Positions 19,846 to 47,835 of a stretch of DNA of 64,000 nt are shown here, one piece after another. The translations under genes and the position numbers were made by a program. This DNA comes from Hydractinia symbiolongicarpus (taxonomy: Eukaryota; Cnidaria; Hydrozoa; Anthoathecata; Hydractiniidae), in contig NC_079884.1 of assembly GCF_029227915.1 (NCBI RefSeq), positions 27,094,001-27,158,000 of the forward strand, read 5' to 3'. Numbering within the stretch: the stretch's first letter is position 1; every line of letters starts with the position of its first letter. Below the pieces are notes generated by a model, which saw only the letters and a program-made list of their open reading frames with translations, searched no databases and was not told the origin of the DNA.

Positions 19846-19992
19846 TAAAAACTTACCTGTAACGTACAGTTTCCATTACGTTAAAAACTTATTGTAAAAG
19901 TACAATTTCCAGTACGTTTTAAAAACTTGCCTGTAACGTGCAGTTTCAAGTATATACGTTAAAAAACTTACACGTAGCGCACAGTTTCCAAA
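19846..19992. repeat. Short minisatellite beside a retrotransposon copy
   Basis: Four diverged units of about 35-45 bases follow the pattern AAAACTT.CCTGTAACGT.CA then GTTTCCA.TACGTT. The array runs into the truncated end of the minus-strand USP retrotransposon copy at about 19968-19990. Confidence 0.6.
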
Positions 19993-22262
19993 CTTTGAAG
20001 AACACCTACAAATGCTTCGCCTAACTTTGAGGTTGTTTTGCTGACAAAAATGGCTTCTTTAACTTTTGGGAGGTTATAAAAACATCGTAAGATGGAGTTT
20101 GCATAACATGTGTTTCCCAAGTTTGTTAGACCGCTATTCCTAAAATCAGGGTTAGACGGCAATGCGACTGTTGTTTTGGAAGACCTTGTAGCAAGTTTTT
20201 CGGGTTTTTTGATTTTACAAGATTTTATGTGATTTGTGGAAGATTTCGAAGGGGGTTTTGACTTCTTACATTCCATATTTGTAACAGAAGAAACTGCAGG
20301 AATGATTGGGGCCTTTTCAGGCTCAACCCAAGTGGTAGAATTTTGAGACATCCAGATGTAAAAAGAAGCACTCATGGAGGTAAAAGTTAGGGATTTTAAT
20401 AGGGAACGTAAAGGCTTGTTAGGGAAACAAGGCAACGAAAACATGTCGTTACTGATTCTGAACACCACCTCAATGGCAAATAAATGCACGATCCATCCAT
20501 TGTTTTTCATAGCATAACAAAGTGAAGAATATTTGTTAAGCTTTCGTTTCTGCCAATATTCCATGTTCTCTTCACATGGACAAGTGAGTTCTAACATACT
20601 TACAGTTTTGGAAGAACTGGATATTAATAACACGTCTGGGCGTAGTTGTGTTATTGCAATGTATGGTGGAACAACTAAAACGGAATCTAAATCTGACAGT
20701 ATTTTCCAATCGGAAGCAAGGTGAAGAAGGCCTAGACACTTTGTATGCCTCTTCTTAGATGGTGATTGACTGATCGGAATGAAATTAATTTTGTTGCACT
20801 TGGAAACTTAAGAGGTTCATATGATACTAAAAACTCTTTTAATGCCTTAACCAAAACTATTAAAACCGAGTCATGACGGTATGTTTATTTACCCTGAGTA
20901 AGGGAGGTCCTACAGGCACCCAATATGTGAGAGACATTCGAGGATGGTTTCTTGGACAGATTGCAACTTTTGTCTTTCTCAATTCCCCATCTCACAAGAT
21001 TGGTTGGAGATGGAAGGGTGTCGTAGGTTGCCTGTATACAAAAGGAAGTTAGACATTGTGGCAGTGAAAGAATTGTTCCCCAAGATAAATCATTTTTCAC
21101 ATAAAAGCACCATTTTGTCCAATTGCCTTGCAAATGCAACTTTACAGCTCTGGCATGGTAAAAATATCGTCTTTATTTTCTTCAATGACATTGGAAACAA
21201 GCTTTTTTGGTTGTATATTTTTGTGCTTTAAGAGCCCTAAGCCAGCTCACCCAGTCTGATAACAACCTAAAATCTTTTTCAAATTGAGCTGACTATCCGC
21301 CCAAAAAACTGCCTCACTAACTTTCCAATTTCCAGCCTTTATATCTGGAACGCACTTAGACACACAAGGGTTGACAGATCTCTTAGTAACAGATGTCCAC
21401 TGATTTTGACAGATTTGAGAACAGATGCTAGACTTTTCAGGGAAAGAGGACAAGGCGATGTCGAGGAATTTAAGGAAATGTTGGAAATTGAATGTAGTTT
21501 TAACCATTTCCTAATGAAAACAGAAAATCTTTGCTCTAGGTTTGTGATAGTAAATAGCGAAACTTCATAAATTAATAATGGCCAGCGGATTCTGGGAATT
21601 AACAGATGGTGTAGAAACCAAACATTATGGAACCCTTTATGAAAGGACCTGTCTATAGCTATAGGTTTGTCTTCGGCATCATTTAGAAATTCTTGTATTG
21701 CAGCAGAATCAGACAAGGATGAGTTTATTGTTCTGCCTTTGTGGCGCCGTAGATTAGTGGTTATTGCTCTCGTACTCTGTGCGGGAGACCGGGGTTCGAT
21801 TCCTCTTGACGGCGATTCAACTCGGGCGAGTGAATGTTACCATAGCCTCGGGTTAACCCAAGCCATGTGAGGGAAATTGGGAAGATGGCACACTGTGTGG
21901 GCCGTTGGATGTTGCAGGGAGTTGTCTAGTAGAGCGCGCGCTCTAATTGGGTCTGCGTAGCTCAAAATGAGCTCTAAATACTCTAGGACTCTCCATCTAA
22001 GCCATGGCCCCTCCTGGAAATAATAGACAGGGTATATCCCTCGATATTTGTGAGGCTAGCCATGTAAAATATGCACATTTATCTATCTATCTATCCTAAA
22101 AACCTAATTGGATTAGAATGAATAGATGGAATTTTTTCGCTGCCAACTGTAAACGGTGAACTTCGGACAACTTTTCCCTTATCAATAACAATGCTGCGTG
22201 ATTTAGAAGGCCTAAACGACATGCCTACCCAATCAAGAGCTGCCAGAATAAGACTCCCTACA
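19968..22262 (-). mobile_element. Truncated copy of the RT-RLE-USP retrotransposon, interrupted by a SINE
   Basis: Read on the minus strand, this aligns with the plus-strand copies at 42390-44120. It starts just after the RT catalytic motif (LDWVGMSFRPSK-like, near 22250), passes through RT thumb sequence and a decayed zinc-knuckle region (about 20900-20950), then the endonuclease core (LTCPCEENMEYW) and a C-terminal USP Cys box (SGLTNLGNTCYANSIL at about 20060-20110). It ends before the rest of the USP. Frameshifts and stops are present. The 5' truncation is usual for target-primed reverse transcription. The intact Cys box is informative because the related copy at 40.4-45.4 kb has lost it. 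Confidence 0.8.
21739..22094 (+). mobile_element. tRNA-derived SINE inserted in the retrotransposon copy
   Basis: The 5' part contains a polymerase III A-box-like TAGATTAGTGG and a B box GGTTCGATTCC within a tRNA-like 70-base head (GTGGCGCCGTAG ... GACGGCG). An unrelated body follows and the tail is repeated ATCT. Alignment with the uninterrupted sister copy near 42518-42535 shows that the retrotransposon sequence is broken exactly here. CCT is duplicated on both sides (21736-21738 and 22095-22097). The short duplication is unusual for a SINE and may be partly chance. Confidence 0.8.
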
Positions 22263-25602: not shown

Positions 25603-25740
25603 TATGGTGAGAAAAACACAATGTTAACATCTCATTACTTTTTAAACTTCAAACTTAACTTAGAAATAGACAACACGAAGGTGAAACTACAGACCAAAAA
25701 TTAATAAGAAACAAATTCTCTTTTAATGTACAAGCTGCTC

Positions 25741-26043
25741 GTCAACTTGGTGACATGTGCATGAAAGCTTCTTTCTGTATTTGAGTCGCTAGAAATACAA
25801 AGGTATGGAATGAACACAGCCACATCCCTATTTCAACCAACTTTTCCATACCCACTCCTCTAATGCCAACGACCAAACAACCAACAGTCACCAAGCCCAA
25901 TACACCTGTTAAAGCAGGCCCAGACCCACCTACCCACAGCAAAGTAATTCACACAGGATTAATAAATAAAGGAAACACCTGTTACGCCAATTCCATCCTG
26001 CAAGCATTAACTGCAATCCCATCATTTTGGTTACATCATGTCT
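25741..26043 (+). pseudogene. USP Cys-box fragment of the retrotransposon family
   Basis: After a decayed end of the endonuclease region and a Pro/Thr-rich linker (TTKQPTVTKPNTPVKAGPDP) comes GLINKGNTCYANSILQAL, the canonical catalytic-Cys box of ubiquitin-specific proteases. The frame ends at 26043, where R340-containing sequence interrupts the domain. The linker shows that endonuclease and protease belong to one reading unit. Confidence 0.75.
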
Positions 26044-26204
26044 AAGGTCAGAAAGCTTTTCTGTTTCCAGGTTTGCTGCTTTTTATTCTTTGTCACTACC
26101 TCTCTAAGGGCTGGGTTTCAAGTCTACCTCTCTTAGCCCTGGGCTCTGTGTCAGTAGGTAAAAGCAACAACGATACGATTTGCAGCTGTCGACTTTTCTT
26201 TTTC

Positions 26205-26543
26205 CAAAGTTTAACAAAAGTTATTGGTTTTGGCGGACGGTGTCAATGAATGTGGCTGGTGTCTTGCAGGAGGCAGGGGATGCTTACTCAAGGGCCCGCA
26301 CCAGATCCCAAGCATGAGTGAATTTCACCAATCCTCCTGTTTCCACATTCATAGGTGTTTGTTTCAGTGCAGTCGAAATCCATTAACTTTCCGATTTTCC
26401 CTGTAAAGGGGAGAATGCAGAAGTTCTCCCGCAGCTTCTTATTCTTTGGAGAGAAACCTCCTTTTTTTAATTAAACTTTCCGTCTTAAAAGACTAGTTTT
26501 ATCTGCATTGCGATGTAGTTACTCCTATTCTCTTCGGAATCTT
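26205..26543. repeat. Dispersed repeat R340, copy 2, inside USP coding sequence
   Basis: This second copy of the 22665-23000 repeat interrupts the USP domain between the Cys box (ends 26043) and the next USP block (starts about 26556). The sequence at 26044-26204 is unassigned and may be part of the same insertion. Confidence 0.6.
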
Positions 26544-26555
26544 CTCTTGTTTCTC

Positions 26556-27200
26556 CTCTATTGAAGTCTGTTATGCTCAGTATGTCCATGCTGTTCCAGT
26601 CTTCCACAGCTGTTGAACCTTCCGCCTTCTTAAGAGCCTTGCCGCTTGAGATGGCCAGCATTAGGAAGACCCCATTTGACATTAATACCCAGCAGGACGT
26701 GCTTCATGTCTTGGGTGAATTAACAGGACCTTCAGTTATCGCAAGTAATATCATCACCAACATTATAACCACTACGACGTCATGTAATGCATGCTTCTTA
26801 TCAACTAACAGGGAGGAAAGTACGCCTATTGTGCCACTCCCTATCTCAAACAGCGTTACAGGTTCAATTAATTGTTTTTTGCAACCCCACCTCTTTTGAG
26901 GTGACTCAGCTAGACATTTTGGGTACCTTGGTTCAGGAATATGAGTCGAAACCCTTGTACCCTGCACAGAAGTCCTGTTTCTATACCTATCACTTTAGAC
27001 TTGTGAAGTCTCTTGTCAAAAGCACTACAACTTCAGGGCTGTAATTAACCACTCGTTTGAACAATGGTCATTACACTACTGTTGCTTATAACCAAGTGCA
27101 TGGTAAGTGGTTTCATTGCAACGACAGAGCAGTGGTCCCTTGCAAACAAAACTTGCTAAATGGTGTCCAATCTTTTCCTTGAAGAGCTTAGGTAAATTTC
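26556..27200 (+). pseudogene. USP middle and C-terminal fragments of the retrotransposon family
   Basis: The frame 26561-26898 has PSAFLRALPLEMASIRKTPF and NTQQDVLHVLGEL (QQD box), then TTTTSCNACFLST (one zinc-binding Cys pair). Type II tail sequence is spliced in at about 26898-26975. Then NNGHYTTVAYNQVHGKWFHC (His box, with a frameshift) and an end at about 27190 follow. The copy is a mosaic rather than a simple truncation. Confidence 0.65.
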
Positions 27201-27659: not shown

Positions 27660-27824
27660 ATTGTGCACTTTTATATGAGCATATTCTTTAGAGGAGCAAA
27701 ACATCTAGAATTTAAATTTTAAGACTTAACTGGTCGAGTTTATCATTGTGCGTGCACTTTGTAACTTCCATTCTTCTCTTTTATTATAATTATGAAAAGT
27801 TACATTCAACGCAGCTTTTTCAAG

Positions 27825-28705: not shown

Positions 28706-28799
28706 TACGGAAAAGCAATCTCTGAAAAACTACGCACATGTTTCACTACTGAAGCCACCTACATAATGATGACAATCCATTACTCCTTTTCCATATTTA

Positions 28800-29260: not shown

Positions 29261-29269
29261 TTTCTTATT

Positions 29270-29736
29270 GCTACTGTCCGAAAGGATAACGAATGATAAT
29301 CTGGAAAGACAGATTGACACTGGGAAAGACTAGACTCTTTTTATTTATTTGTTTATTTTGTTTTGTGTGTGTGTATGTATGTCTGTTGTTTTTCTGTTAT
29401 TCTTCTGTTACATGTAACATCACACTCCCTACTGTCAGTCACTATTATAAGTGAAGTATTCAGCAATAAACAGATAGTACTGTCACGCAAGGGGTCAATA
29501 GGTAGAGTCGTGGGATGGCATGAAAAACATGCCTGCTGAGCCCACGTAAAAGTTGGCACCCCCAACCCAATTGTTATCTGTCGCTCCCACCAAGCTTAGG
29601 CCGGCCCGTGGGATATTTATGGTCTATGACAAAGTTAAATTTTTTAAACAATGATACCCCCAACGATATAGACCCTGACCGTATTAGGACTACCCCTCCG
29701 GATATCGATTTCGTTATTACTAACTCCTCTGTCCCC
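29270..29736 (+). repeat. Retrotransposon 5' UTR and N-terminus in an internally deleted copy (unit 1)
   Basis: It matches 40406-40870, the 5' end of the near-complete element. It includes the nested hairpin CGTGGG..CCCACG at 29509-29546, the hairpin GTTGG-CACCC-CCAAC at 29552-29566, and the start of the N-terminal reading (NDIDPDRIRTTPPDIDFVIT). At 29736/29737 it jumps directly to the 3' tail, so this is a 5' end plus 3' end derivative. The second copy is 31347-31814. Confidence 0.7.
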
Positions 29737-29901
29737 ATTGTGCACTTTTATATGAGCATATTCTTTAGAGGAGCAAAACATCTAGAATTTAAATTTTAAG
29801 ACTTAACTGGTCGAGTTTATCATTGTGCGTGCACTTTGTAACTTCCATTCTTCTCTTTTATTATAGTTATGAAAAGTTACATTCAACGCAGCTTTTTCAA
29901 G

Positions 29902-30782
29902 CTAAGTAGACATAAATGTGGCACCTCTGAGTAAGCTGTGGTTTAGTAATCGATGAATGGCTTTATTTGCTTCTGTTCCTTCTCCAGGGGCAATTCCAGG
30001 GAGACAACATTTTACTGCATGATCAGACAATTTTTCTAATTCGTTATAAACTTTAATTGATTTTTCAATGCACTGCTTCTTAATTTTTTTAATATTTTCC
30101 ACTGTTTCAGTAGGGTAGGGGTTTTCACAGTACGAACAGCCCCCAATTCATTTTTATATCGAAACATGTAAGTGATTTCGTTCATAAGGGAGTAATAATA
30201 AGGTTATTTTAAAATTTTGTATGTTATTCTCTCAGCAGCATGAAAGAGATATAACTTTATATCAGCATAAAGTAAATGACGGTGGTAAAAGTTTCATTCA
30301 GTGCAACATATATTAATTTTACATCATTAAATAAGTTTTGCCTTGAGAAAATTTCCATCCAATTTGTGATGTCTTTTTGTGATGTTGACCTGCAAAGGCA
30401 TCACTGAGCAATTTGTAATAAATGCATTCTCATATTCCCGATGACAGCCACCAGACTTAAATGTATGGTCAGTAGATTTATAAGTTGTTTTTTCCGCCTT
30501 GATTCTTGCTCTAAAAATAAGTTCATAATCTTATCTTTACTGGGGGAACCAATATCTGATTATCATTAAATTTTGGCATTGGTTATGTGGACATGTTACT
30601 CATTTGTGTAAAGTTCGCTCCACGTACAACTTGATCAAAAACATATTTTCACAAATGGAATGTAAAGTGAGTGCTGGATAAACTAAAGCGTTCAAAATGA
30701 ATATGCGACAAACAAGAGTTTGTTCAGGGTCTTCATCTTGAAGGAAAAGTCTCCCGCACTGTTTTATTCCACATTCAAACAT
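29902..30782 (-). pseudogene. Decayed mobile-element gene fragment in the tandem unit (copy 2)
   Basis: This is a near-identical repeat of 27825-28705, with the same GIAPGEGTEANKAIHRLLNH block and the same stops. Confidence 0.4.
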
Positions 30783-31814
30783 TACGGAAAAGCAATCTCT
30801 GAAAAACTACGCACATGTTTCACTACTGAAGCCACCTACATAATGATGACAATCCATTACTCCTTTTCCATATTTATCTCATTTGTACCTATTCAATTCA
30901 TTTTGAATTGCTTTAATATTTATTGTTTAGTGTTGTGTTTTTAGTCGCTGTTGTATTTTTTTGCCTTTTACGGTCAATGTTTTTAGGAAATCCTTGCAAA
31001 AAGGGGGATTTTGCTTTTTTGAAAAATCTCTAGAGGGTTGCAACCTCTAACTATAGTAGAACCAGCTGTCATTAGACAAGAAATATCATTACAGCTAGCT
31101 GTTGTTTATAACCAAGTGCATCGTAAGTGGTTTCATTGCAACGACAGAGCAGTGGTCCCTTGCAAACAAAACTTGCTAAATGGCGTACAATATTTTCCTT
31201 GAAAAGCTTAGGTAAATTGCAGTCACCAGTTTATGTCAGCAAGTGGGGTTTGACGATTCTTATTTTTATTTATTTTTCCAAAGACCTAACAGGTTGAGTT
31301 CATCATTGTGGTGGCTTGCTACCTCTTTGTAAATTATTTTCTTATTGCTACTGTCCGAAAGGATAACGAATGACAATCTGGAAAGACAGATTGACACTGG
31401 GAAAGACTAGACTCTTTTTATTTATTTGTTTATTTTGTTTTGTGTGTGTGTATGTATGTCTGTTGTTTTTCTGTTATTCTTCTGTTACATGTAACATCAC
31501 ACTCCCTACTGTCAGTCACCACTTATAAGTGAAGTATTCAGCAATAAACAGATAGTACTGTCACGCAAGTGGTCAATAGGTAGAGTCGTGGGATGGCATG
31601 AAAAACATGCCTGCTGAGCCCACGTAAAAGTTGGCACCCCCAACCCAATTGTTATCTGTCGCTCCCACCAAGCTTAGGCCGGCCCGTGGGATATTTATGG
31701 TCTATGACAAAGTTAAATTTTTTAAACAATGATACCCCCAACGATATAGACCCTGACCGTATTAGAACTACCCCTCCGGATATCGATTTCGTTATTACTA
31801 ACTCCTCTGTCCCC

Positions 31815-32290
31815 ATTGTGCACTTTTATATGAGCATATTCTTTAGAGGAGCAAAACATCTAGAATTTAAATTTTAAGACTTAACTGGTCGAGTTTATCA
31901 TTGTGCGTGCACTTTGTAACTTCCATTCTTCTCTTTTATTATAATTATGAAAAGTTACATTCAACGCAGCTTTTTCAAGCTAAGTAGACATAAATGTGGC
32001 ACCTCTGAGTAAGCTGTGGTTTAGTAATCGATGAATGGCTTTATTTGCTTCTGTTCCTTCTCCAGGGGCAATTCCAGGGAGACAACATTTTACTGCATGA
32101 TCAGACAATTTTTCTAATTCGTTATAAACTTTAATTGATTTTTCAATGCACTGCTTCTTAATTTTTTTAATATTTTCCACTGTTTTAGTAGGGTAGGGGT
32201 TTTCACAGTACGAACAGCCCCCAATTCATTTTTATATCGAAACATGTAAGTGATTTCGTTCATAAGGGAGTAATAATAAGGTTATTTTAA
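31815..32290. repeat. Third tandem unit, left part, broken by a retrotransposon copy
   Basis: It matches the first 476 bases of units 1 and 2 up to AAGGTTATTTTAAA, then switches to retrotransposon coding sequence at about 32291. The unit resumes at about 36232. Roughly 55 bases present in units 1 and 2 at the junction are absent here. Confidence 0.8.
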
Positions 32291-35200
32291 ATGGAGAAAG
32301 TCCCAGGATGCTGGGAACACATGTCAATGGTTTGGTCTGCACTTAAAGAGGCCCGGGCCAACAAATCACACCTTGCAAATATATGGCTGGATATTGCAAA
32401 TGCATATCCTTCAATTCCACACAAGCTTATATTTTTTGCACTGGAAAGGTATGGAGTCCCTCAGAGTTGGATATCATTCATTAAGTCATACTACGTTGGT
32501 TTATATAGCAAATCGTTTTCTTTGTCTGCACCAAGCAACTGGCACAAGCATATGCGAGGTATTTTTGCAGGTTGCACTCTTTCCATCATTTTGTTTCTTG
32601 CTGGTATAAACATTATTCTTGAATACACTATTGCGGCACCAGCCCCAAATTATATTACTTCTAAAAACGTGCCCCTTCCTTTAGTCAGAGCTTCTATGGA
32701 TGATATCAACCTAATGTCATCCTCTGTCTGTGGAGCTCAAAGCCTCCTTTCCAGGTGCGTCACTGCTTTAAAATGGGCTGGCATGAGTTTTTGCCCTCGT
32801 AAGTCAAGGAGCATAATCCTTATAAAAGGTAGATCTGTAAACTCCACACCTTTTTCTGTGTCTCACATCTCGTCACAAACCGACTTCTCTTCATTCATTC
32901 CGTCAATCCATTCATCGCCAGTTCGTTTTCTCGGTCGCATTATTGATGGTACGATTTCAGATGCTAAAGCAATCGACGAGCTAGATAATAAGCTAATAAC
33001 CGGTCTTACAATCATAAACGGTTCGTGTTTCAAAGGGACCCAAAAACTATGGATTTTGCAAAACCTTCTAATTCCTCGAATCCAATGGCCAATTCTTATT
33101 TATGAAGTTCCAATATCTCGGGTTACAAGGCTGGAGCAGAAGATATCAACTTTCATTAGAAAATGGCTATCTCTGCACAATTCCACGTCAAATATTTGCC
33201 TATATAGCTCCTGCTCGCCTTGTCCAATGCCAATTAAGAGCTTGACGTCATTGCTTACATGCTCTAAAATAAGTGGTCATTTACTTTTACGCGATTCCAA
33301 AGATCCTCTTGTGTCTAACAGTGCACCTACTTTGAAAGTTGGCATGTGGAAAGTGGACAACGCAGTAAGAACAGCAGAGGCAGAGGTGAAAATAAAGTCA
33401 GTCGTGGGAACTCCCCAGTATGGCAAAGCCGGCCTAGGGATCAACGAATCTTTCAAAATTCCGATTTCAAAACAGTGCTATGCGTATCGTAAATTAATAT
33501 CGAACACAGCTAAAGATATCTATGAGGAAGGCAACATGGGTAGAGCATTGCAGTTGGAAGTGCAGGGTCAGTGGACGAGATGGGAAAATTACACAAAAAA
33601 CGATCTATCTTGGAAGTCCATTTTTGCCATGTCCCCACACTTGCTTTCCTTCTGTCTTGCTTCTACTTACGATGTTCTTCCCTCACCTAGCAATTTAAAG
33701 CGCTGGAACGTTTGTACTGAATCTGCTTGTGCCTTATGTTCCAAACAAGTATGTACAACAGCGCATGTTTTAGGCGCTTGCAAGGTTGCTCTATCACAAG
33801 GAAGGTTAACTTTCCGACACGATGCTGTGCTTCGCGGGCTCCTGTTAAGTCTACAGCGTTTTTCATCTGAAGTTGTCCCGGAAACGAAAAAGCACCTTAA
33901 AGTGTCATTTGTAAAAGCAGGTAGCTATTCCTCCGCTAAAAGATCAAAACCAACTGGTCTATTCCACCATGCTAGTGACTGGGTGATGTTAGCAGATCTG
34001 AATGAAGGATTTGTGTTTCCTCGCCATATTGCAATCACATCCCTCCGGCCAGACATTGAAATATACTCAAATTGTTCTAAGCGCATCATCATTATTGAAC
34101 TTACTTGTCCTTGTGAGGAAAACATGGGATCCTGGCATTCCACCAAGCTTTCCAAATACTTCCCTTTGGTCGAGGTAATACGTAGCAACGGGTGGTTTCC
34201 GCATCTTTTTGCAGTAGAAGTGGGTGCTAGGGGCTACTCTTCAAGGTCTCTAACTTGCTGTCTAAAAAGCCTCGGTTTCGCTAGCACATCTGCGTTTTTA
34301 ACCGCCCGCGAGCTTGGCGATATAAGCATGAAAGCATCCTTTTGCATTTGGATTGCACGAGACTCACCACATTGGTCACAAGATCTTACGCACTGCAGTC
34401 CGCCAACATTGACACGATCAAAGGATAGTATACCTCATGAAAAATCCTCGTCTGTTACCAAATCCATTAAAAGTCCATCTTCAGCCATCTCTGACATGCC
34501 AAAACCCACGGAACACCATAACCTTAGCCAGGAACTTAAACAAAAGGTGAGCATCGTTCACGCTGGTTTGATAAACTAGGGGAACACATGCTACGCAAAC
34601 TCCATTTTGCAAGCATTAACGGTTCTTCCAAGACTTTGGTCTCAATTACCATCAGAGTCCTCTTTGTCATCTCCTCTAGTAAAGTCTATAGTCCTAAATA
34701 TGTCACTACTGAATCGTTCTCGTTCACCAATTGATCCTTCCAATTTCTTACGAGCACTGCAAAACAGAATGCATGCTCTTAACAATAACGCGTTTTATCA
34801 CAATCACCAACAAGATGTGCCCGAGATCCTTCAAGTTGTTTTTGACGAAATTATTGGATCTTCCCCTTTGGTTGACAATCTACTGTCTGTAACTATGACC
34901 ACAACAACGTCATGCAACTCCTGTTGTTTCTCCACTTCCAGGGAGCAAAAGGATTCAATTTTAATTTTACCAACGTGTAAGTCAATAGCAGACTCTTTTA
35001 ACAAATTTTTACAACCTCAAGAACTTCTAGGTGACAACAAGTGGTTCTGCCCCCAGTGTTCATCGCATCAAGAGGCCACAATTGAAACTCAGATTTCTAA
35101 TTGCGGCGACTTCCTTGTTGTACAATTGTTAAGATACACATCAGTAAATGGGTCTTCTTTTAAAGACAACAAGTTAGTCAATTGCTTGCCTAAAAAACAT

Positions 35201-35431
35201 CATGTCTTAAAGGTAGCATCTCACCCAACTGACGATGTGTCTTTCAACAACAAGTATAACTTGGTTGCTACCATTAACCACTCAGGTACATTAAAAGCAG
35301 GTCATTACTGGGCCTTCATTAAGGACCAACAAAACACCTGGTTCAAATGCAACGATCGCTGTATTTCTCAAGTAGACACATTCCACTTGAATAATTCTTC
35401 GTCATACATACTTTTCTTTTCCAGAAGTTAG
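32291..35431 (+). pseudogene. RT-zinc knuckle-RLE-USP polyprotein, one internal TAG
   Basis: A single frame of about 1,046 codons is open except for one TAG at 34577-34579. Domains in order are: RT from mid-fingers, with motif A IWLDIANAYPSIPH (about residue 30), motif B IFAGCTLSIILF, and a catalytic MDD in place of the usual A/FADD (SMDDINLM); zinc knuckle C480-x2-C483-x8-H492-x4-C497; and an R2-type restriction-like endonuclease with RPD (D588), then ELTCPCEEN (E603) and K..KY. The C-terminal C19 ubiquitin protease has a Cys box GNTCYANSILQAL (Cys767), HNHQQDVPEIL, Cys pairs CNSC and CPQC, His box NHSGTLKAGHYWAF and a final WFKCND. The RT N-terminus is missing, so this copy is 5'-truncated. 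The TAG replaces the residue before GNTCY, which is Lys or Leu in other copies. All protease residues I can identify are retained. Confidence 0.85.
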
Positions 35432-36231
35432 CTTATTTGTATGTCACACAACAAATGGGGGAGGGAATCCATGACCCTAGCGGCTTTATTTACCCCAGCT
35501 GATTTATGTTGGTCAGTGCACCGTGAAACCGGAGTTTGCTCACTCCTCTCTTTGTATAGAGACAATGTAAGAAGCACAGCAAGGGGGCTTGATATCATAT
35601 CTTGTCTTTGGGTTTAACGATCCCACTTATTACCCCAGTCCAGTAGGGAGGCAGAGTTTGCTCACTTTGCTTTCAGGATTGACAATCCTGCTGCCCTTAG
35701 TCATTTTAGAAGAAGCTTTGCAAGGGGGTTACATTTTCTTATCTGGTCTTCGTGGTGTTACGCCCACGCATATTACCCCAGTTATGACAGGCTGGTTCTG
35801 TCATTAGGCAGGTCCACAGCAACAATTATCTGTGTAAGGCTGAGTGTTGGAGCTCCATAACACATGTGGAAAACTACAGCCAGGGTCACAAGTCCTGGCG
35901 CGCAGATAGTTGTTTGCTTCTTAAACACATTCTCTAAAGAATAATTTTAAATTTATCCGTTTAAGGATATTCACGTTATGATAAGTTTTATTTATCTCAT
36001 TTGTACCTATTCAATTCATTTTGAATTGCTTTAATATTTATTGTTTAGTGTTGTGTTCTGTCGCTGTTGTATTTTTCTGCCTTTTACGGTCAATGTTTTT
36101 AGGAAATCCTTGCAAAAAGGGGGATTTTGCTTTTTTGAAAAATCTCTAGAGGGTTGCAACCTCTAACTATAGTAGAACCAGCTGTCATTAGACAAGAAAT
36201 ATCATTACAGCTAGCTGTTTTGTCACCTCAT
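35432..36231 (+). repeat. 3' UTR of the 32.3-kb retrotransposon copy (type I)
   Basis: Four tandem units share GCAAGGGGG ... GTCTT.G.G.TTACG.CCCAC..ATTACCCCAGT (35440-35790). The RNA module follows at 35821-35914. The tail hairpin TAGAGG..CCTCTA at 36146-36168 comes next, and the terminus GCTGTTTTGTCACCTCATCA ends at 36231 where tandem unit 3 resumes. Confidence 0.75.
35821..35914 (+). ncRNA. Structured RNA module in retrotransposon 3' UTR, copy B
   Basis: The closing stem AACAATTATCTG/CAGATAGTTGTT (12 pairs, one G-U) encloses GTGTT/AACAC, whose loop includes the palindrome GGAGCTCC, and GCCAGG/CCTGGC with loop GTCACAAGT. Compared with copy A, both strands of the closing stem and the sixth pair of the last hairpin have changed together. 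Confidence 0.65.
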
Positions 36232-37080
36232 CATCAATAAAGTAAATGACGGTGGTAAAAGTTTCATTCAGTGCAACATATATTAATTTTACATCATTAA
36301 ATAAGTTTTGCCTTGAGAAAATTTCCATCCAATTTGTGATGTCTTTTTGTGATGTTGACCTGCAAAGGCATCACTGAGCAATTTGTAATAAATGCATTCT
36401 CATATTCCCGATGACAGCCACCAGACTTAAATGTATGGTCAGTAGATTTATAAGTTGTTTTTTCCGCCTTGATTCTTGCTCTAAAAATAAGTTCATAATC
36501 TTATCTCTACTGGGGGAACCAATATCTGATTATCATTAAATTTTGGCATTGCTTATGTGGACATGTTACTCATTTGTGTAAAGTTCGCTCCACGTACAAC
36601 TTGATCAAAAACATATTTTCACAAATGGAATGTAAAGTGAGTGCTGGATAAACTAAAGCGTTCAAAATGAATATGCGACAAACAAGAGTTTGTTCAGGGT
36701 CTTCATCTTGAAGGAAAAGTCTCCCGCACTGTTTTATTCCACATTCAAACATTACGGAAAAGCAATCTCTGAAAAACTACGCACATGTTTCACTACTGAA
36801 GCCACCTACATAATGATGACAATCCATTACTCCTTTTCCATATTTATCTCATTTGTACCTATTCAATTCATTTTGAATTGCTTTAATATTTATTGTTTAG
36901 TGTTGTGTTTTTAGTCGCTGTTGTATTTTTTTGCCTTTTACGGTCAATGTTTTTAGGAAATCCTTGCAAAAAGGGGGATTTTGCTTTTTTGAAAAATCTC
37001 TAGAGGGTTGCAACCTGTAACTATAGTAGAACCAGCTGTCATTAGACAAGAAATATCATTACAGCTAGCTGTTTTGTCAC
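36232..37080. repeat. Third tandem unit, right part
   Basis: From ATAAAGTAAATGACGG onward this matches 28185-29015 in unit 1, including the minus-strand fragment at 36570-36752 and the type I tail. It ends at GCTGTTTTGTCACCTCA near 37083 instead of running into the USP scrap found in units 1 and 2. Confidence 0.8.
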
Positions 37081-37363
37081 CTCATTATCATACCCATGGG
37101 TATATCATTGTGCGCACAATAAAATTTCAAGTTTTTAAAGTTAAATTAACTATACTTTTTTTCCAGGACTGATAAAAACAATATTTGTGTTACATCCGTC
37201 TAACAGTACGTTGTTGAAGTAAGAATGAGTAGAGCCACTAGCTGTCACAATGTCCTGCAATGAAAACGCGCTGACAGTCTTACGTAGTTGTGTCAAGTTG
37301 CGTAGTATGGATCCTTCATCCCTGTCACAAACTTTCCTTTGCCTGCCCCTGTTTCAATGGCGA

Positions 37364-39544: not shown

Positions 39545-40405
39545 AATTTCCCTTGTCGTCCGTCGACTGTGCTAGAACATACATTTTCCTATCTCTCCAG
39601 TGAACCCTTCTTCATTTCTAAATGCATTAAAACCCATGTTTCTTATGCAAGGGGTGCTGCTTTTAATCCGATCTCTCAGCAAGATGCCTTAGGGATTCTT
39701 GAGTATCTTCTACCAGAGTTGTCCTGCCTTTCCTTTCTTTGGTAGATTATTCAACACTCGTGTGAAAATCTGCACTACTTGCAGCGCTAGCAATAATATT
39801 AGCAACTCTGAGCAAGTAAGTCCATTTCTTCAACTGCCCTTGACTGTACAATCTTCAATAGATAAGTTTTTGGAGAGCGAAGAATTGTCAGGTGTCAACA
39901 CGTACTTCTGTCACTACTGCAATAGTTACCAAACTGCAACAGGTAAAAAAGAGGTCGCAGAGTGTAGTTCTATTTTGGTTCTGCAATTAAAGCGCTTTGC
40001 CTATAACAAAGATCTTGTGTCTAAGGTTTGTTCTCCTGTCACATCTTACCCGCACACCCTTTCTATACCTATCACTTTAGACTTGTGAAGTCTCTTGTCG
40101 CAAGCACTACAACTTCAGGGCTGTAATTAACCACTCTGGAAGTTTACAATGGCCATTACGCTACTGTTGCTTATAACCAAGTGCATCGTAAGTGGTTTCA
40201 TTGCAACGTCAGAGCAGTGGTCTCTTGCAAACAAAACTTGCTAAATGGCGTACAATATTTTCCTTGAAGAGCTTAGGTAAATTGCAGTCACCAGTTTATG
40301 TCAGCAAGTTATGTTTGACGATTCTTATTTTTATTTATTTTTCCAAAGACCTAACAGGTTGAGTTCATCATTGTGGTGGCTTGCTACCTCTTTGTAAATT
40401 ATTTT
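39545..40405 (+). pseudogene. USP-domain copy with 3' tail, retrotransposon family
   Basis: The plus strand reads PSSFLNALKTH-like sequence, ISQQDALGILEYLL (QQD box), CTTCSAS..CHYCNSY zinc-binding pairs, LVLQLKRFAYNKDLVSK and, after a frameshift near 40080, NNGHYATVAYNQVHRKWFHC with the His box. It stops at about 40275. The Cys box is absent because sequence upstream is the virus-like block. The type II tail ends at about 40405 and the next element begins at once. Confidence 0.7.
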
Positions 40406-40683: not shown

Positions 40684-41052
40684 TAAAAGTTGGCACCCCC
40701 AACCCAATTGTTATCTGTTGCTCCCACCAAGCTTAGGCCGGCCCGTGGAATATTTATGGTCTATGACAAAGTTAAATTTTTTAAACAATGATACCCCCAA
40801 CGATATAGACTCTGACTGTATTAGGACTACCCCTCCGGATATCGATTTCGTTATTACTAACTCCTCTGCCCTTCCTGCTACCTGTGATTTTTCGTTACTC
40901 CCTTCCACTAAGCATTGGACATTAAAACCGTGTAAAGTTGTTTTGCATGATGTGCTAGCTGTTGATTCCACTGAAAAGTCTCGGCTGCTAACCGGGATAA
41001 CTCCCACAGTGTTCTTTCTCAGCAATCAACAGAACCTGACCATCTTAGCACT

Positions 41053-42225
41053 ATGAAATGGAAACAACCTATTGCTTGGCTGAAGTCAATTGACACAAAA
41101 TTGTGGAATTCCCTTGATGATGCAGTTTTCCACAATCTCCTAGGCTCTTACACTTTGTCCAAAAAAATGGAGCTGTTGGAATCAAGAATTTATTACCATG
41201 CGTCTCACCTGTTTGGTGTAAGGTCACTTCCCCAGCACAACGTATCAGGTTTGAACAGGAGAGCTTTACGCAGCATCAGTTTGGTGAACGAGAAGAACAA
41301 TCTACTCCGAACTCTTAAGAGCACATCTGACCCAGTTGAGAAAAGCAACATGCAAAACCTTTTAGATGATATAATGGCCAAGTTAAGGTTACTTCGCAGA
41401 GGTGAGCGGAATAGGAAACGACGTTGGAAAATCTCGGATGCACGCCGGGCTTTCTCTAAGAATCCTTATCAGGCTGGAAAAAATATTTTAGATCCTAAAT
41501 GTTCAATAAAACTTAAAGTTGCCCAGGACGAAATGGATTCACACAAACATTCAAGCCTGAACGATCCTTCACGCCATATACCTCTTTCCGATCTCCCTGG
41601 ATTGCCTTCACCACCAAATCTAGTCTCAGCTTTCGATTCTTTCAAGCCAAAGTTCAAGGATTCCCAAGCTGTCCTACATTCTCGTAGAAATGCTTCTTCT
41701 CCTGGGCTGAACCAAATTCCTTACACAGTATATAAGAATTGTCCTCATATTGCATCGTTTCTGTTTAACATCTTTCAAGCTTGTCTAAAGATGTCTTTTA
41801 TTCCTGTGCAATGGAGAATTGCATCAGAAGTTTACATACCTAAAAACAACACACCTTGTCCATCCAACATAAAGGATTTTCGCCCCATAGCTCTTCTGAA
41901 TGTTGAAGGAAAGCTATTTTTTACTTTGATTTCCAAGCGGTTAGAATCGCATATTATAAAGAAAAACAACTTCACTAATACTTCCATTCAAAAAGGTTGT
42001 ATGGAAAAAGTTCCGGTTTGCTGGGAACACGTGTCTATTGTTTGGTCCACATTTAAGAATGCGAAGGCACAACATTCTTCACTTTCAGCCATATGGCTTG
42101 ATATTGCTACGACAGCCTGTGGAGTAAGTCTTTTTCGGCTTCTGCTCCATCCAGTTGGCATCAACACTGTAGGGGAATTTTTATCGGCTGTACACTTTCC
42201 ATTATACTATTTCTTGCAGCTATAA
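41053..42225 (+). pseudogene. Retrotransposon RT domain, N-terminal half
   Basis: A basic N-terminal region (RRGERNRKRRWKISDARRAF, NPYQAGKNILDP) precedes NASSPGLNQIPYTVYKNCP, the 'PGPDGI'-like block found before RT in R2-related elements. WRIASEVYIPKNNTP, DFRPIALLNVEGKLF (RT motifs 1-2), IQKGCMEKVPVCWEH and AIWLDIA (motif A start) follow. After that the frame changes to unrelated residues (TTACGVSLFRLLL), because about 50 codons, including the rest of motif A, are missing compared with the 32.3-kb copy. An upstream N-terminal piece (40757-41045) lies in another frame. Confidence 0.8.
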
Positions 42226-43380
42226 ACGTTATTATTGAGTATGTGTGTGTTACCCTCGGCCTTATTGATACTGAAGGTAATAAAAACAAAATCCCAGACC
42301 AACCCCCAATAAAAGCTTTTATGGATGATATGTTCTTAATGTACTCCAAGTACTCAAAATTTATTAAACAGGTGTACAACAGCTCTTGATTGGGTAGGCA
42401 TGTCGTTTAGGCCTTCTAAATCACGCAGCATTGTTATTGATAAGGGAAAAGTCGTCCAAAGTTCACCGTTTACAGTTGGCAGCGAAAAAATTCCATCCAT
42501 TTATTCTAATCCAATTAGGTTTTTAGGCAGAACAATAAACTCATCCTTGTCTGATTCTGCTGCAATACAAGAATTTCTAAATGATGCCGAGGACAAACTT
42601 ATGGCTATAGACAGGTCATTTCATAAAGGGGTCCATAAGGTTTGGTTCTTACACCATCTGTTAATTCCCAGAATCCGCTGACCATTATTAATTTATGAAG
42701 TTTCTCTATCTACTATCACAAAACTAGAGCAAAGATTTTCTGTTTTCATTAGGAAATGGTTAAAACTACATCATTCAATTTCCAACATTTCCTTATATTC
42801 CTCGACATCGCCTTGTCCTCTTCCCCTGAAAAGTCTTCATCTGTTCTCAAATCTGCCAAAATCAGTGGGCATCTGTTACTAAGAGATTCTGTCGACCCTT
42901 GTGTGTCTAAGTGCGTACCAGATTTAAAAGCTGGAAATTGGAAAGTTAGTGAGGCAGTTCTTTCGGCGGATAGTCAGCTCAATTTCAAAAGGATTTTAGG
43001 TTTGCATCAGACTGGTCGAGCTGGCTTAGGGCTCTTAGACCACAAAAATATACCACCAAAAGGCACTTATGCTTACCGAAAGCTTGCTTCCAATATCATT
43101 GAAGAAAATGAAGAAGATATTTACCATGCCAGAGCTGTACAGTTGCATGTGCAAGGCAATTGGACAAAATGGTGCTCTTATGTGAGGAATGTTTTATCTT
43201 GGAGAACAATTCATTCACTGCCACAATGTCTAACTTCCTTTTGTATAGGGGCAACCTACGACACCCTTCCCTCTCCAACCAATCTTGTGAGATGGGGAAT
43301 TGAGAAAGACAAAAGTTGCATTCTGTGCAAGAAATCATCCTGAAATGTCACTCACATATTGGGTGCCTGTAGGACCTCCC
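42226..43380 (+). pseudogene. Retrotransposon RT C-terminal half and zinc knuckle
   Basis: FMDDMFLMYSK (RT catalytic motif C, around 42321), DWVGMSFRPSKSRSIVIDKG, NPIRFLGRTINSSLSDSAAI, the thumb (ISGHLLLRDSVDPCVSK, TGRAGLGLLDHKN), then YDTLPSPTNLVRWG and CILCKKSS with a TGA inside the knuckle before THILGAC. Several stops and frameshifts separate these blocks, so this copy cannot make a full protein. Confidence 0.75.
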
Positions 43381-44120
43381 TTACGCAGGGTAGATACACA
43401 TACCGTCATGACTCGGTTTTAATAGTTTTGGGTATCATATGAACCTCTTAAGGTTTCCAAGTGCAACAAAATTAATTTCATTCTGGCCGGTCAATCAACA
43501 TCTAAGAATAGGCATACAAAGTGTGCAGGCCTTCTTCACCTTGCTGCCGATTGGAAAATACTTTCAGATTTAGATTCCGTTTTAGTTGTTCCACCATTCA
43601 TTGCAATAACACAACTACGCCCAGACGTGTTATTAATATCCAGTTCTTCCAAAACTAAATATGGTAGAACTGACTTGTCCATGTGAAGAGAACACCGAAT
43701 ATTGGCACAAACGAAAGCTTAACAAATATTCTTCACTTTGTTATGCTATGAAAACCAATGGATGGATCGTGCATTTCTTTGCCCTTGAGGTGGGAGCAAG
43801 GGGTTTCTGTTCAGAATCAGTAAGGACCTGTTTTCGTCGCCTTGGCTTCCCTAACAAGCCTTTGCGTTCCCTATTAAAATCCCTAACTTTCACCTCCATG
43901 AGTGCCTCTTTTTACATCTGGATGTCTCGAAATTCTACCACTTGGGTTGAGCCTGAAAAGGCCCCAATCATTCCTGAAGTTTCTTCTGTTACAAATATGG
44001 AATGTAAGAAATCAAAAACACCTGAGAAATCTTCCGCAAGTCACACAAAATCTTGTAAAATCAAAAAACCCGAAAAACTTGCTACAAGGTCTTCCAAAAC
44101 AACAGTGGCATTGCCATCTT
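43381..44120 (+). pseudogene. Retrotransposon restriction-like endonuclease region
   Basis: After a frameshifted stretch, RPDVLLISSSSK is followed by MVELTCPCEENTEYWHKRK, LNKYSSL and HFFALEVGARGF. This is the PD-x(12-15)-E-x-T ... K..KY layout of the RLE in R2, NeSL, CRE and R4 elements. A Lys/Ser-rich linker (KSCKIKKPEKLATRSSKTTV) leads to the USP. Confidence 0.75.
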
Positions 44121-44783
44121 ACCCATCTCAGCTGCGAAGGGAAGTGCATTTAATATCTTTGCTCAGTACGACGTCCCCGAGGTTCTTGAATTTCTCCTAC
44201 CTGGTCTGTCATTAGACTTTCCATTTCTTGGAAGTCTTTTTAGTATTGGCATCATGACATCAACCACTTGCAATTCATGTCATGTTACCAGCTCCTCAGA
44301 AGTTATAGCACCATGCATCCAACTTTCTCTGCACCCTACGTTACAATCTTTCTTAGATAATTTCTTCGAAAGCGAGGAGTTGTCAGACACCAATGGCTAC
44401 TTCTGCCATGTTTGCAACGCTCATCAAACTGCTCTAGTTGAAAAAGAGGCAGTGTCGTGCGGTTCCCATCTCATTTTACAGCTAAAACGTTTTGCCAGTG
44501 CCAACGGCCTTGTGTCAAAAATTGCCTCTCGTATTACTGCTTACCCTGGTACCCTTTCCATACCTTTTCTGTAGATGGAGAAGTGAAATTTCGTAAAAAT
44601 TTTCAATTAAGGGCTATTATCAACCATTGCGGAAACTTAAATGATGGTCACTACACAACCATAGCCTTCGACCAAATGGTACGCAGGTGGATACATTGCA
44701 ACGATAGAGCAGTAATTTTCTGTGATGACCGCCTTATTAACAGTGACGAGTCATATGTTTTCTTTTTAGAAGAGCTGAGATAA
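44121..44783 (+). pseudogene. USP domain lacking the Cys box
   Basis: It starts at about GSAFNIFAQYDVPEVLEFLL (degenerate QQD box, with Gln replaced by Tyr), then CNSCH and CHVCNAHQ, LILQLKRFASANGL, and, after a one-base frameshift at about 44570, NHCGNLNDGHYTTIAFDQ (His box) and WIHCNDRAVI. The catalytic Cys block seen in the minus-strand copy at about 20110 is deleted, so this protease copy is dead. Confidence 0.75.
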
Positions 44784-45439: not shown

Positions 45440-47071
45440 AAGGATTAGGGGCGTTCCATTTAATATTAACACCCAACGTTCCAGAGATACTTTTGCACAT
45501 CTTGGATGAATTAACAAGTACCGTTATTGCAAACAATAGCATTACTAATATTTTAACAACTACCATGTCATGCAATTCGTGACTCTTTTTATCTAGTAGG
45601 GATGAGAGGAGGACTATTGTGCCACTTGCTACCTCAAGTAGCGTTGTAAACTCCTGTCAATTGTTTTTCCTACCCGAAGAGCTGACTGGCAATGACATAT
45701 GGCTTTGTCGACAGTGTTCTTCCCTCCATGATAGTAATAATAATAATATAATAATAATGGTATATTTCGGGCATATCCATATTTTACAATGGCTCTTCAT
45801 CCCTAATTAAAAACAGCTATTTATAATAAAAATTAAAGAAAATTTTAAAAAGCGTAATATATATTTCAGTATAAACATTAATCAACTAAAATTAGACTCG
45901 AAATGGACATGAGAATAGAGTGGATAGAACTAGTGGAGAAATGGCTGGAGGCATGGTGGGATGCGATAGCGTGGAATCGATTGGTGAGAAAACGTATGGA
46001 CAAGGCAAAATCAACAAATAAACAGATTATATATTAAAGAAATACTATAGTATTAGTATATGTAATCAAATAAAGTCAGAGACTGAAATGGACTTGGAAT
46101 AGAACGAGTAGAACAAGCGGAGAGAACAAAAAACAGCCTGGGGGAAATAGTAACTTGATTGGCTGGAGCTATGCGCATACTGAGGACATACTGGGTAGAA
46201 TCGAGACTGTTGTTGGAATATATAAGAACAGGACAAAATCAACAAATAAACATGCAATCGTAAAGTCGTAAATAAAAGTGAACAGTGTGTGTATATATTG
46301 AATGTAATATTTTCTATAAAAAAAAAAACAAAAAAAAAAACCAATGTTTATTTATATATTTTGCAAGAGCTCTATCTGATAAATAACATTTAGCTCCGTA
46401 AACAAATTTTTTATAAACCACTTCTTTTCGTAGACTGGTGGGAAGATCGTTCAGTTGTCGACTACTTCTTCCAATAAAAGTTTTATCCGATGCGTTAACT
46501 TTGAATTCGGACACACATCTTTCAGAACTTCTTGTCGTTCTTTCTGTTTTCTTCATTTCCAGCCCTTTCAGGTATGTGGGAAATTCTGTTTCGTGCAAAG
46601 ATTTGTGAGCGAGTTTCAACATGTTCAAGTTAATTCTCTCTTTGGAGGGCAACCATTTCAAATTCAAAATATCTGCTGTGGTACAGTAGTGCGCTGTAAC
46701 AAAGGCTGCTGATAGTACAAGAGAGACGGCTTTTATTCAGTGTGGAGATTTGTTGATTCTCCAACTAAAAAGATTTACCTGTGTCGAGGGAAGATCAGTA
46801 AAAAACAACCAATTTGTTAATTGTATCTCTCAATCTGGCAACATATTGGAGGTACCTTCACATCTTTCAGATGATGTATCTTTTACCAACTAATACAAAC
46901 TAGTGGCAACTATAAATCATTCAAGCACACTAGCAGCAGGTCATTATTTGGCATTTATTAAGATCGGAATGTAGACGAGTGGTTGAAATGCGATGACAGG
47001 GCAGTAGTTAAGATTAAGCCTTCTGATATAAATAACTCAACAGTGTATATCTTGTTCTTTCTCAAGCTGTG
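45440..47071 (+). pseudogene. USP domain copy split by a LINE insertion
   Basis: The left part (45440-45736) holds a decayed QQD region, TTTMSCNS-like Cys sequence and LPEELTGNDIWLCRQCSSLH. The right part (46718-47071) resumes in the same frame as GDLLILQLKRFTCVEGRS, SHLSDDVSFTN, NHSSTLAAGHYLAFIKD and ILFFLKL. Between them lies a CR1/L2-like piece flanked by an 8-base duplication. One in-frame stop (in DVSFTN*YKL) and others show decay. The nearest relative in the window is the USP at 34580-35431. Confidence 0.8.
45737..46709 (-). mobile_element. 5'-truncated CR1/L2-like LINE nested in the USP copy
   Basis: The minus-strand frame 46667-46340 reads LKWLPSKERINLNMLKLAHK, then SLHETEFPTYLKGL and RQLNDLPTSLRKEV. 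This matches the C-terminal tail of CR1/L2/jockey-like RTs (LKWLPVxxRIxFKxLxLxxKxL ... LWNxLPxxIR). A 3' UTR with two diverged repeats (about 45895-46030 and 46075-46250) follows. The 3' end is an ATT-rich microsatellite, typical of these LINEs. TGATAGTA flanks both sides (45729-45736 and 46710-46717). Confidence 0.8.
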
Positions 47072-47835
47072 AAAACGCAAGTTTTGCTTTGGAAAAGGGG
47101 GAGGATTTCTCTTCCTAGCGGTTTTATTACCCCGGCTGTTATTTTCACCGCATGCCTACCGTAATTCAGGAGTTTGCTCACTCTCCACTCTCTTACAGAG
47201 TAATTAAAAGAAGCTAAGCAAGGGGGGTTGACAATCTGTCTTGTCTCTTGGCGTGACGGCCCCACTTTTAACCCCAGTCCATTAGGGAGGCCACGTTTGC
47301 TCACTTTATCTACAGGGTTAACGATCCTGGTGTACCCACAGTTATTGTTCTAAGAAGCTTTACAGGGGGGAGTTGAAATTTATTTTCTGGTCTTCGTGGA
47401 TTTACGCTCTAGTATTTTACCCCAGTAACTTCAGGCTGATCCTGACATAGAGCTGGTCCCAAGCGTCAATCACCTGTGTAAGGCTGAGTGTTGGGATCCC
47501 GTAACACATGTGGAAAGCTACGGCCAGTTTCACAAGTGCTGGCGCATGGTTGTTGTCTGCTCTTATTTATTGTTTTATATTTATAATATATTTATTTGTT
47601 TCTTTCAGTGTTGTATAGCAATTTGTAACTGTCAGTAGGTGTTTGTGATGAAATGTTTATAGAGGGTCATTAGTTCAATTACTTTAATTCTGCAGACTAT
47701 CCTTGTAAAAAGGGAGATCTTGCACTGAATATAGATCTCTAGAGGGTGTAACCTCTACACTTCGAAAACAAAAGAGTCAGTAGACTAGTTCCATCATTAC
47801 AACTTGCTGTTTTGTTATCTCACAATCAACCTTAG
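47072..47835 (+). repeat. 3' UTR of the split USP copy (type I)
   Basis: Tandem AAGGGG..TTACCCC units (47093-47425), the structured RNA module (47465-47555), the tail hairpin TAGAGGGTGTAACCTCTA (47743-47760) and the terminus GCTGTTTTGTTATCTCA (to about 47823) are present in the same order as after the 32.3-kb copy. Confidence 0.75.
47465..47555 (+). ncRNA. Structured RNA module in retrotransposon 3' UTR, copy C
   Basis: It has the same core (GTGTT/AACAC around GGGATCCC; GCCAGT/GCTGGC ending in a T-G wobble; loop TCACAAGT). The closing stem AATCACC/GGTTGTT is weaker, with one mismatch. Confidence 0.55.

What the first reader, a model, noticed from the sequence alone, without database searches (positions are those of the whole stretch)
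32291..35431. Non-LTR retrotransposon polyprotein fused to a ubiquitin-specific protease
In one frame, RT motifs are followed by a CCHC knuckle (C480-x2-C-x8-H-x4-C497), an R2-type PD..E endonuclease (D588, E603) and a C19 protease with Cys box, QQD box, two CxxC pairs and His box. Known protease-bearing relatives (NeSL group) carry Ulp1- or OTU-type proteases. A C-terminal USP is, to my knowledge, unusual and may be undescribed. Several copies in the window keep the same domain order (minus strand at 20 kb, plus strand at 26, 32 and 40 kb), so the fusion is a family trait, not a chance junction. A cleavage or deubiquitination role during the element's life cycle is inference.
Basis: partly seen in the sequence, partly recalled or inferred. 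Interest (0 to 1): 0.88.

Follow-up and report, generated by a model that had tools for sequence, protein, structure and literature searches.

The report
Jumping gene with built-in deubiquitinase
A family of copy-and-paste jumping genes in what appears to be a colonial sea animal (a hydroid) carries, as part of its own protein, a complete enzyme of the kind cells use to remove ubiquitin tags, and natural selection seems to have kept that enzyme intact.

Summary
Copy C (32292-36236 +) is one insertion into a 2077-bp tandem unit whose empty copies lie in the window. It encodes RT, CCHC knuckle, R2-like endonuclease and a ubiquitin-specific protease (USP; PF00443, 4e-32). It is 5' truncated, with a premature stop in the Cys box. 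The assembly matches Hydractinia symbiolongicarpus HSymV2.0 (two scaffold statistics). Elsewhere in it, 7 nearly identical copies (family F1) keep the whole architecture in one open frame of 1423-1426 codons; copy C's own family has a 1422-codon one. At least five divergent families (USP about 30-55% identical) share the layout; EN and USP trees agree on family order, suggesting one capture. Catalytic and zinc residues are kept. F1 against its nearest relative gives dN/dS about 0.13 for USP, 0.65 for the linker; young F1 copies show no constraint on USP (few changes). Of the 20 best endonuclease hits of one family, 18 have USP sequence downstream. Nine literature searches gave no non-LTR element with a USP; relatives carry Ulp1, and a C19 domain is reported on a DNA transposase. 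Best reading: an RLE retrotransposon lineage with a selected deubiquitinase, probably protecting its RNP or acting on local chromatin; the substrate is inference. Other animals could not be tested.

The parts
32292..36236 (+). Copy C: one 5'-truncated retrotransposon insertion (3945 bp) in a 2077-bp tandem unit; 53 bp of the unit (28137-28189 in an empty copy) are missing at the filled site
   Evidence: Comparison with empty units at 28100-28260 and 30177-30337; both junctions checked base by base against 28136/28190; repeats
32291..33490 (+). Reverse transcriptase, from motif 2/3 onward (motif A D, motif B GIFAGCTLS, motif C MDD) and thumb
   Evidence: PF00078 E 2.3e-10 over residues 17-216; translation; motif and thumb names recalled, read by eye
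33728..33781 (+). CCHC zinc knuckle (C480, C483, H492, C497)
   Evidence: zf-RVT 5.6e-4, below Pfam cut-off
34046..34159 (+). R2-like restriction-like endonuclease core (PD588...E603...K..KY)
   Evidence: P, D, E and K invariant in four aligned copies of other loci; colinear but individually insignificant match of family F1 to R2
34565..35428 (+). Ubiquitin-specific protease (peptidase C19) domain: Cys box, QQD, two CxxC pairs, His box GHY, CNDR; premature stop at 34577-34579
   Evidence: PF00443 E 4.2e-32 for the part after the stop; positions; residues kept in 33-35 of 35 aligned rows
35432..36236 (+). 3' untranslated region with two copies of a GGGG...CCCC module, ending in CATCATCA
19968..22255 (-). 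Copy A (broken): RT, knuckle, EN, first part of USP
25710..27161 (+). Copy B (broken): end of EN and USP in pieces
39591..40246 (+). Copy D: USP fragment
40922..44765 (+). Copy E (broken): N-terminus, RT, EN, USP lacking its Cys box; eight stretches 91-97% identical to copy A
45451..45735 (+). Copy F: USP fragment
46591..47545 (+). Copy G: end of USP (to 47066) and 3' UTR similar to copy C (76%)

Best explanation
This is a lineage of R2-like (restriction-like-endonuclease, single-ORF) non-LTR retrotransposons in what is very probably Hydractinia, whose protein ends in a complete ubiquitin-specific protease. Shown: the fusion is inside the mobile unit, is intact in several near-identical copies, is shared by at least five divergent families with agreeing EN and USP trees, and between families the USP domain is under purifying selection with its catalytic and zinc residues kept. 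Inferred: the enzyme is an active deubiquitinase acting in cis with the element's own RNP. Most likely it strips ubiquitin from the element protein itself, or from histones and repair factors at the nicked target, so that target-primed reverse transcription can finish before the protein is degraded or the site is repaired.
For: Empty site for copy C. Seven F1 copies with whole open frames (six of 1426 codons, one of 1423) at 99-100% identity on five contigs, and one 1422-codon frame in copy C's family. Pfam order RVT_1, zf-RVT (below cut-off), UCH in L010, L015, L016 and L017. RT matches R2 best in PDB (3e-20), USP matches USP8 and USP2 best. EN and USP trees have the same unrooted order of families. 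F1 against F1b: USP pS 0.72, pN 0.26; RT 0.71, 0.14; EN 0.76, 0.14; linker 0.47, 0.35; approximate Fisher test USP 3e-31, linker 0.17. Catalytic Cys in 35 of 35 rows, His 34, Asn/Asp 34, zinc Cys 33-35 (the 35 rows are 30 places, and one search had dropped rows with under 85% cover or more than one stop). 18 of the 20 best EN hits have USP sequence downstream (9 beside a hit, 9 of 11 fetched).
Against: Among the young F1 copies, pooled against L010, the USP differences are 19 nonsynonymous to 5 synonymous (ratio 1.02, no constraint visible), against 0.15 for RT and 0.57 for EN, on very few changes, shared ones counted more than once. Synonymous sites are saturated between most families, so dN/dS there is only a bound. 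Of 20 EN hits two have no USP in the 1.2 kb downstream and one keeps only its first 20 residues. USP is the least conserved enzymatic domain. Pairs of broken copies give USP w 0.62-0.67. No transcript, protein or activity data; the substrate is not shown. One structure prediction was uninformative (pLDDT 38).
Confidence: 0.72

Rival explanations
1. The USP is a polyprotein-processing protease that cleaves the element's own protein into RT/EN and USP parts.
For: The linker between EN and USP evolves fast (pN 0.35), as a cleavage region might; proteases of LTR elements and viruses do this (recalled).
Against: USPs recognise a ubiquitin fold followed by Gly-Gly (recalled). Pfam found no ubiquitin domain in the four element frames scanned (a weak APG12 match, below cut-off, in three of them and in copy C lies just after the RT, in the thumb, and is probably spurious), and the linkers of the four sequences hold no Gly-Gly.
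Confidence: 0.1
2. The USP is a passenger captured from a host mRNA, now without function.
For: Ratio near 1 in the young F1 copies; USP is the least conserved enzymatic domain (30-48% between F1 and the other families, against 53-73% for RT).
Against: dN/dS about 0.13 between F1 and F1b with a weakly constrained linker as internal control, triad and zinc residues kept in all five families aligned, persistence through the family splits.
Confidence: 0.08
3. The USP acts in trans on the host, for example by damping an antiviral, piRNA or DNA-damage response by global deubiquitination.
For: Conserved catalytic site; closest solved relatives are the general deubiquitinases USP8, USP2 and USP15.
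Against: It is fused to the RT/EN rather than a separate ORF, which favours local action; no data on free protein.
Confidence: 0.17
4. Chance neighbourhood of an RT element and a host USP gene, or an assembly artefact.
For: The window copies are broken and clustered, and two fetched loci hold USP without an EN match upstream (L021, L026).
Against: Empty site, seven intact single-frame copies on five contigs, five families. L024, a host-like USP gene with no EN hit, is only 28% identical.
Confidence: 0.01

Closest known systems
NeSL and Utopia (RLE non-LTR retrotransposons; some with a Ulp1-like protease)
   Same: Single-protein, RLE-type non-LTR elements, of which nematode NeSL families and Utopia-1_TSP add a ubiquitin-like-system cysteine protease (PMC4640811 passages)
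   Different: There the protease is Ulp1-like and N-terminal; Utopia has 1-3 N-terminal zinc fingers; targets are U2 or spliced-leader genes. Here it is a USP, C-terminal, with no C2H2 pattern in the N-terminal part and eight different outside flanks among nine F1 loci.
R2 clade
   Same: RT best PDB match (9nl2, 9nl3, 9dou), colinear CCHC knuckle and PD..E endonuclease
   Different: No C2H2 or Myb-like pattern by a simple regular expression, no fixed insertion site, extra USP
Ginger1 DNA transposons; a T. vaginalis transposase with Peptidase C19
   Same: C-terminal OTU or Ulp1 domain on a transposase; one Trichomonas transposase carries a C19 domain (PMC2836005 passages)
   Different: DNA transposases, not reverse transcriptases
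Cellular USPs (USP8, USP2, USP15, USP36)
   Same: Full C19 domain with triad and four zinc cysteines
   Different: Here without introns in the copies read, fused to RT/EN, mobile

Membership tests
RLE-bearing non-LTR retrotransposon | RT followed by CCHC knuckle and PD..E endonuclease in one ORF | tested here: met
RLE-bearing non-LTR retrotransposon | Constant 3' end and variable 5' truncation | tested here: met
   BLAST ends of nine F1 loci lie within 18 nt of each other at the 3' side, with different 5' starts; copy C truncated
R2 clade | N-terminal zinc finger and Myb domains (recalled) | tested here: not met
   no pattern match in the first 270-416 residues of four proteins (a regular expression, not a profile); no such domain in Pfam
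R2 clade | 28S rDNA insertion | tested here: not met
   eight different outside 3' flanks among nine F1 loci, the ninth followed by the next array copy; no Rfam match in the window
NeSL / Utopia | Ulp1-like protease, N-terminal (in nematode NeSL and Utopia-1_TSP) | tested here: not met
   no C48 match in Pfam at E up to 1 in four element frames
NeSL / R4 / CRE / Hero clades | RT phylogenetic position | not testable with these tools
   no reference RT sequences of these clades held; protein database switched off
Peptidase C19 (USP) | Cys, His, Asn/Asp triad and zinc CxxC pairs | tested here: met
Peptidase C19 (USP) | Deubiquitinase activity | not testable with these tools
   needs a biochemical assay

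The most novel reading that the evidence does not exclude
An RLE retrotransposon lineage has made a true deubiquitinase an obligatory part of its integration machine, and at least two of its families (F1, F3) copy themselves from transcripts that start in the 3' UTR of an upstream head-to-tail copy (a pseudo-LTR cycle). The USP would edit ubiquitin at the target or on the RNP during target-primed reverse transcription; it would be, to my knowledge, the first non-LTR element to do so with a USP.
Probability: 0.3. Interest if true: 0.85.

Novelty: new variant of a known kind. Interest (0 to 1): 0.66.

Why it matters
Several unrelated mobile elements have gained proteases of the ubiquitin and SUMO systems (PMC2836005 and PMC4640811, passages), which suggests that ubiquitin helps decide whether a transposition attempt succeeds, but what these domains act on is, as far as I know, open. 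Here the domain is a canonical deubiquitinase (USP), on a LINE-like element with intact and nearly identical copies in what appears to be a laboratory model animal. That makes the question testable with catalytic mutants. It also adds an architecture that repeat annotation may miss: 48% of this genome is unclassified repeat (PMC10411563, passages).

Tried and rejected
Nested or chance junction: rejected by the empty site and intact copies. A family that had lost its USP (C13:23678939-23698042, no USP match): one unit fetched as L038, the USP is present but frameshifted. Polyprotein self-processing: no ubiquitin domain and no Gly-Gly in the linkers read. Relatives outside this genome: none in viral contigs with the RT-EN part of copy C, none in viral contigs or genome contigs with alignment A2 (14 and 75 pattern matches, none confirmed); these collections are viral and prokaryotic, so this says nothing about other animals. 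Structure of the window USP: pLDDT 38, not used. EN alone against PDB: no match. dN/dS at intermediate dS: no usable pair until L038. F4 (L030) against window copy E: EN w 0.79, USP 0.62, a pair with broken copies. F4 against L005: USP 0.67, but L005 holds two USP pieces and may be mosaic.

Full report
CHECK. It is not one open frame: a stop at 34577-34579 splits it into 762 and 283 codons. Pfam gives RVT_1 2.3e-10, zf-RVT 5.6e-4 (below its cut-off) and UCH 4.2e-32.

COPY C IS ONE INSERTION. A 2077-bp tandem unit in the window exists without the element at 28100-28260 and 30177-30337 (repeats). The unit stops matching after 32291 (105 identical bases before it) and resumes at 36237 (270 identical bases after it); 53 bp of the unit (28137-28189) are missing between. 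The 3945 bp inserted hold RT to USP plus an 800-bp 3' UTR, so the USP lies inside the mobile DNA. The copy starts inside the RT: it is 5' truncated, as non-LTR insertions often are (recalled).

GENOME. The window is G000:C10:27094001-27158000. Contigs C1 (42,572,105) and C7 (33,314,500; both lengths) have exactly the maximum length and N50 of Hydractinia symbiolongicarpus HSymV2.0 (PMC10411563, passages). The total differs slightly (480.9 Mb in 76 contigs, against 482.9 Mb in 84), so the naming rests on two numbers.

INTACT COPIES. The PF00443 search scored 149 of 1016 candidates and tallied 150 matches. Twenty stretches were fetched, nine shorter ones later (chosen for long open frames), one more and eleven downstream pieces. 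One search, with the 1426-codon frame as query (33 of 3449 candidates scored, 40 matches), lists nine places covering residues 1-1426 at 99-100% identity: six open frames of 1426 codons without a stop, one of 1423, and two with one stop. Copy C's own family (F2) has a 1422-codon open frame at L015, and L016, L023, L029, L032 and L034 are near-identical to it in the domains compared. F1 and F2 are about 55-57% identical over most of the protein. Pfam finds RVT_1, zf-RVT (below cut-off) and UCH in L010, L015, L016 and L017. The host-like gene L024 (886 codons, no EN hit) is only 28% identical to the element USP over 146 residues.

FAMILIES. I grouped copies as F1 (L010 and others), F1b (L038), F2, F3 (L020, L025, L031), F4 (L026, L028, L030, L035, L037 and window E), F5 (L021, L022, L036); these names are mine. 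Of 29 fetched USP loci outside L002 (no match to the element USP; I take it for a host gene) and L024 (that is, L005, L009-L023, L025-L037), 27 show an EN match upstream; L021 and L026 do not. The choice was not random: best USP hits and long frames were preferred. Identity between F1 and the other families is 53-73% in RT, 41-61% in EN and 30-48% in USP. EN and USP give the same unrooted order of families, though not the same order inside F4, which points to one capture before the families split; the RT tree, with fewer families, places F3 slightly differently.

CONVERSE TEST. The 20 best EN hits of an F4 query, the first being the query itself (148 of 869 candidates scored, 152 matches, not all listed), were examined for a USP downstream. 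Nine have a UCH hit next to them (compared by eye). The other eleven were fetched: nine show USP sequence, often in pieces, of which L039 only the first 20 residues; L049 shows linker only and L044 nothing. So 18 of 20 carry USP sequence.

SELECTION. F1 against F1b is the only usable pair: pS and pN are 0.71 and 0.14 for RT, 0.76 and 0.14 for EN, 0.72 and 0.26 for USP, 0.47 and 0.35 for the linker. With a Jukes-Cantor correction the USP dN/dS is 0.125 and the linker 0.65; an approximate Fisher test, with site numbers estimated, gives 3e-31 for USP and 0.17 for the linker. In six comparisons between families (F1-F2, F1-F3, F2-F3, F1-F4, F1-F5, F4-F5) USP pS is 0.77-0.87 (saturated) and pN 0.28-0.50. 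Against this: inside the young F1 family, pooled against L010 with shared changes counted more than once, the USP shows 19 nonsynonymous and 5 synonymous differences (ratio 1.02), RT 3 and 6, EN 4 and 2, so recent insertions show no constraint on USP. I take that as decay after insertion on few changes, but it could mean relaxed constraint in F1. In the 35-row USP alignment Cys is kept in 35, His in 34, Asn/Asp in 34 (one gap), QQD Asp in 33 and the four zinc Cys in 33-35 rows. The 35 rows are 30 places (five fetched twice), and rows with less than 85% cover or more than one stop had been dropped, which favours conserved copies.

RELATIVES. In PDB the RT is closest to R2 (9nl2, 9nl3, 9dou; about 3e-20 to 7e-20), then LINE-1 ORF2p. 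The knuckle and endonuclease align colinearly with R2 only at insignificant scores on their own, and EN alone finds nothing. The USP is closest to USP8, USP2, USP15 and, over its whole length, USP36. There is no C2H2 or Myb-like pattern N-terminal of the RT in four proteins.

ELEMENT ENDS. The 3' ends of nine F1 loci agree within 18 nt by BLAST. Eight have different outside flanks and the ninth (L010) is followed by the next array copy; I see no evident target-site duplication (by eye). Upstream, five F1 copies carry 116, 208, 291, 480 and at least 764 nt of their own 3' UTR before the body start, and an F3 copy at least 427 nt. L009 and L010 are head-to-tail arrays with a period of about 5.37-5.39 kb. 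Copies therefore seem to derive from transcripts that begin in the 3' UTR of an upstream copy, resembling HeT-A or Penelope pseudo-LTRs (recalled). The F2 loci L015, L016 and L023 show no such repeat in the stretch fetched.

MECHANISM. Target-primed reverse transcription by an R2-like RT/EN follows from the domains, truncation and 3' ends (established for R2, recalled). The USP probably cleaves ubiquitin (kept triad, zinc cysteines and selection); the substrate is inference. I favour action in cis on the element's own RNP or on ubiquitinated chromatin and repair factors at the nick, because in the copies read that still have both, the USP follows the endonuclease. Self-processing is unlikely without a ubiquitin fold in the protein.

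KNOWN OR NEW. Nematode NeSL and Utopia-1_TSP carry an N-terminal Ulp1-like protease (PMC4640811, passages). Ginger1 transposases carry C-terminal OTU or Ulp1, and a Trichomonas transposase carries Peptidase C19; those authors already proposed that the ubiquitin pathway takes part in transposition (PMC2836005, passages). Nine searches (listings only) gave no RT-USP non-LTR element. In the main texts of the two Hydractinia genome papers, PMC10411563 and PMC11067881, the words ubiquitin, protease, reverse transcriptase and non-LTR do not occur (word searches). PMC6338049 (word search and passages) treats accessory domains of retrotransposons without the word ubiquitin. Supplements, Repbase and most bioRxiv preprints could not be searched. 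I therefore call it a new variant of a known kind.

Noticed in passing
L009-L014, L017, L020, L038: Head-to-tail arrays (period about 5.3-5.4 kb) and single copies preceded by variable lengths of their own 3' UTR joined to the body: a pseudo-LTR-like arrangement suggesting that transcripts start in the 3' UTR of an upstream copy.
   Followed up: partly
35581-35636, 35722-35779, 27362, 44810, 47095 (+): A 39-61 nt 3' UTR module (AAGGGGG...TTACCCC) occurs in each of ten element loci searched; five times in the window on the + strand, none on the other, 0 in 50 mononucleotide shuffles (+ strand only). Some of eight copies fold into a GGGG/CCCC-closed structure. Possibly the RT recognition element.
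   Followed up: partly
27660-32291 and 36237-37090: A 2077-bp tandem repeat, 97-99% identical, which itself contains sequence of the 3' end of an element copy and was interrupted by copy C.
   Followed up: partly
RT motif B (e.g. L010 residues 483-491; window copy C): GIFAGCTLS where the R2 protein in PDB has GVKQGDPMSP: an altered motif B in a lineage with intact open frames.
   Followed up: no
10831-12276 (-): Open 482-codon Tigger/pogo-type transposase (DDE_1, HTH_Tnp_Tc5).
   Followed up: no
60153-62356 (-): PIF1-like helicase in two overlapping frames, probably a decayed Helitron.
   Followed up: no
L024 2349-5006 (+): Single-frame 886-codon host-like USP gene with a weak ubiquitin-interaction motif and no EN upstream (perhaps USP37-like, recalled).
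   Followed up: no
L005: Two USP pieces of different identity in one locus, possibly a mosaic or nested copy.
   Followed up: no
22998-23773 (+): Diverged N-terminal part of a related element on the strand opposite copy A.
   Followed up: no
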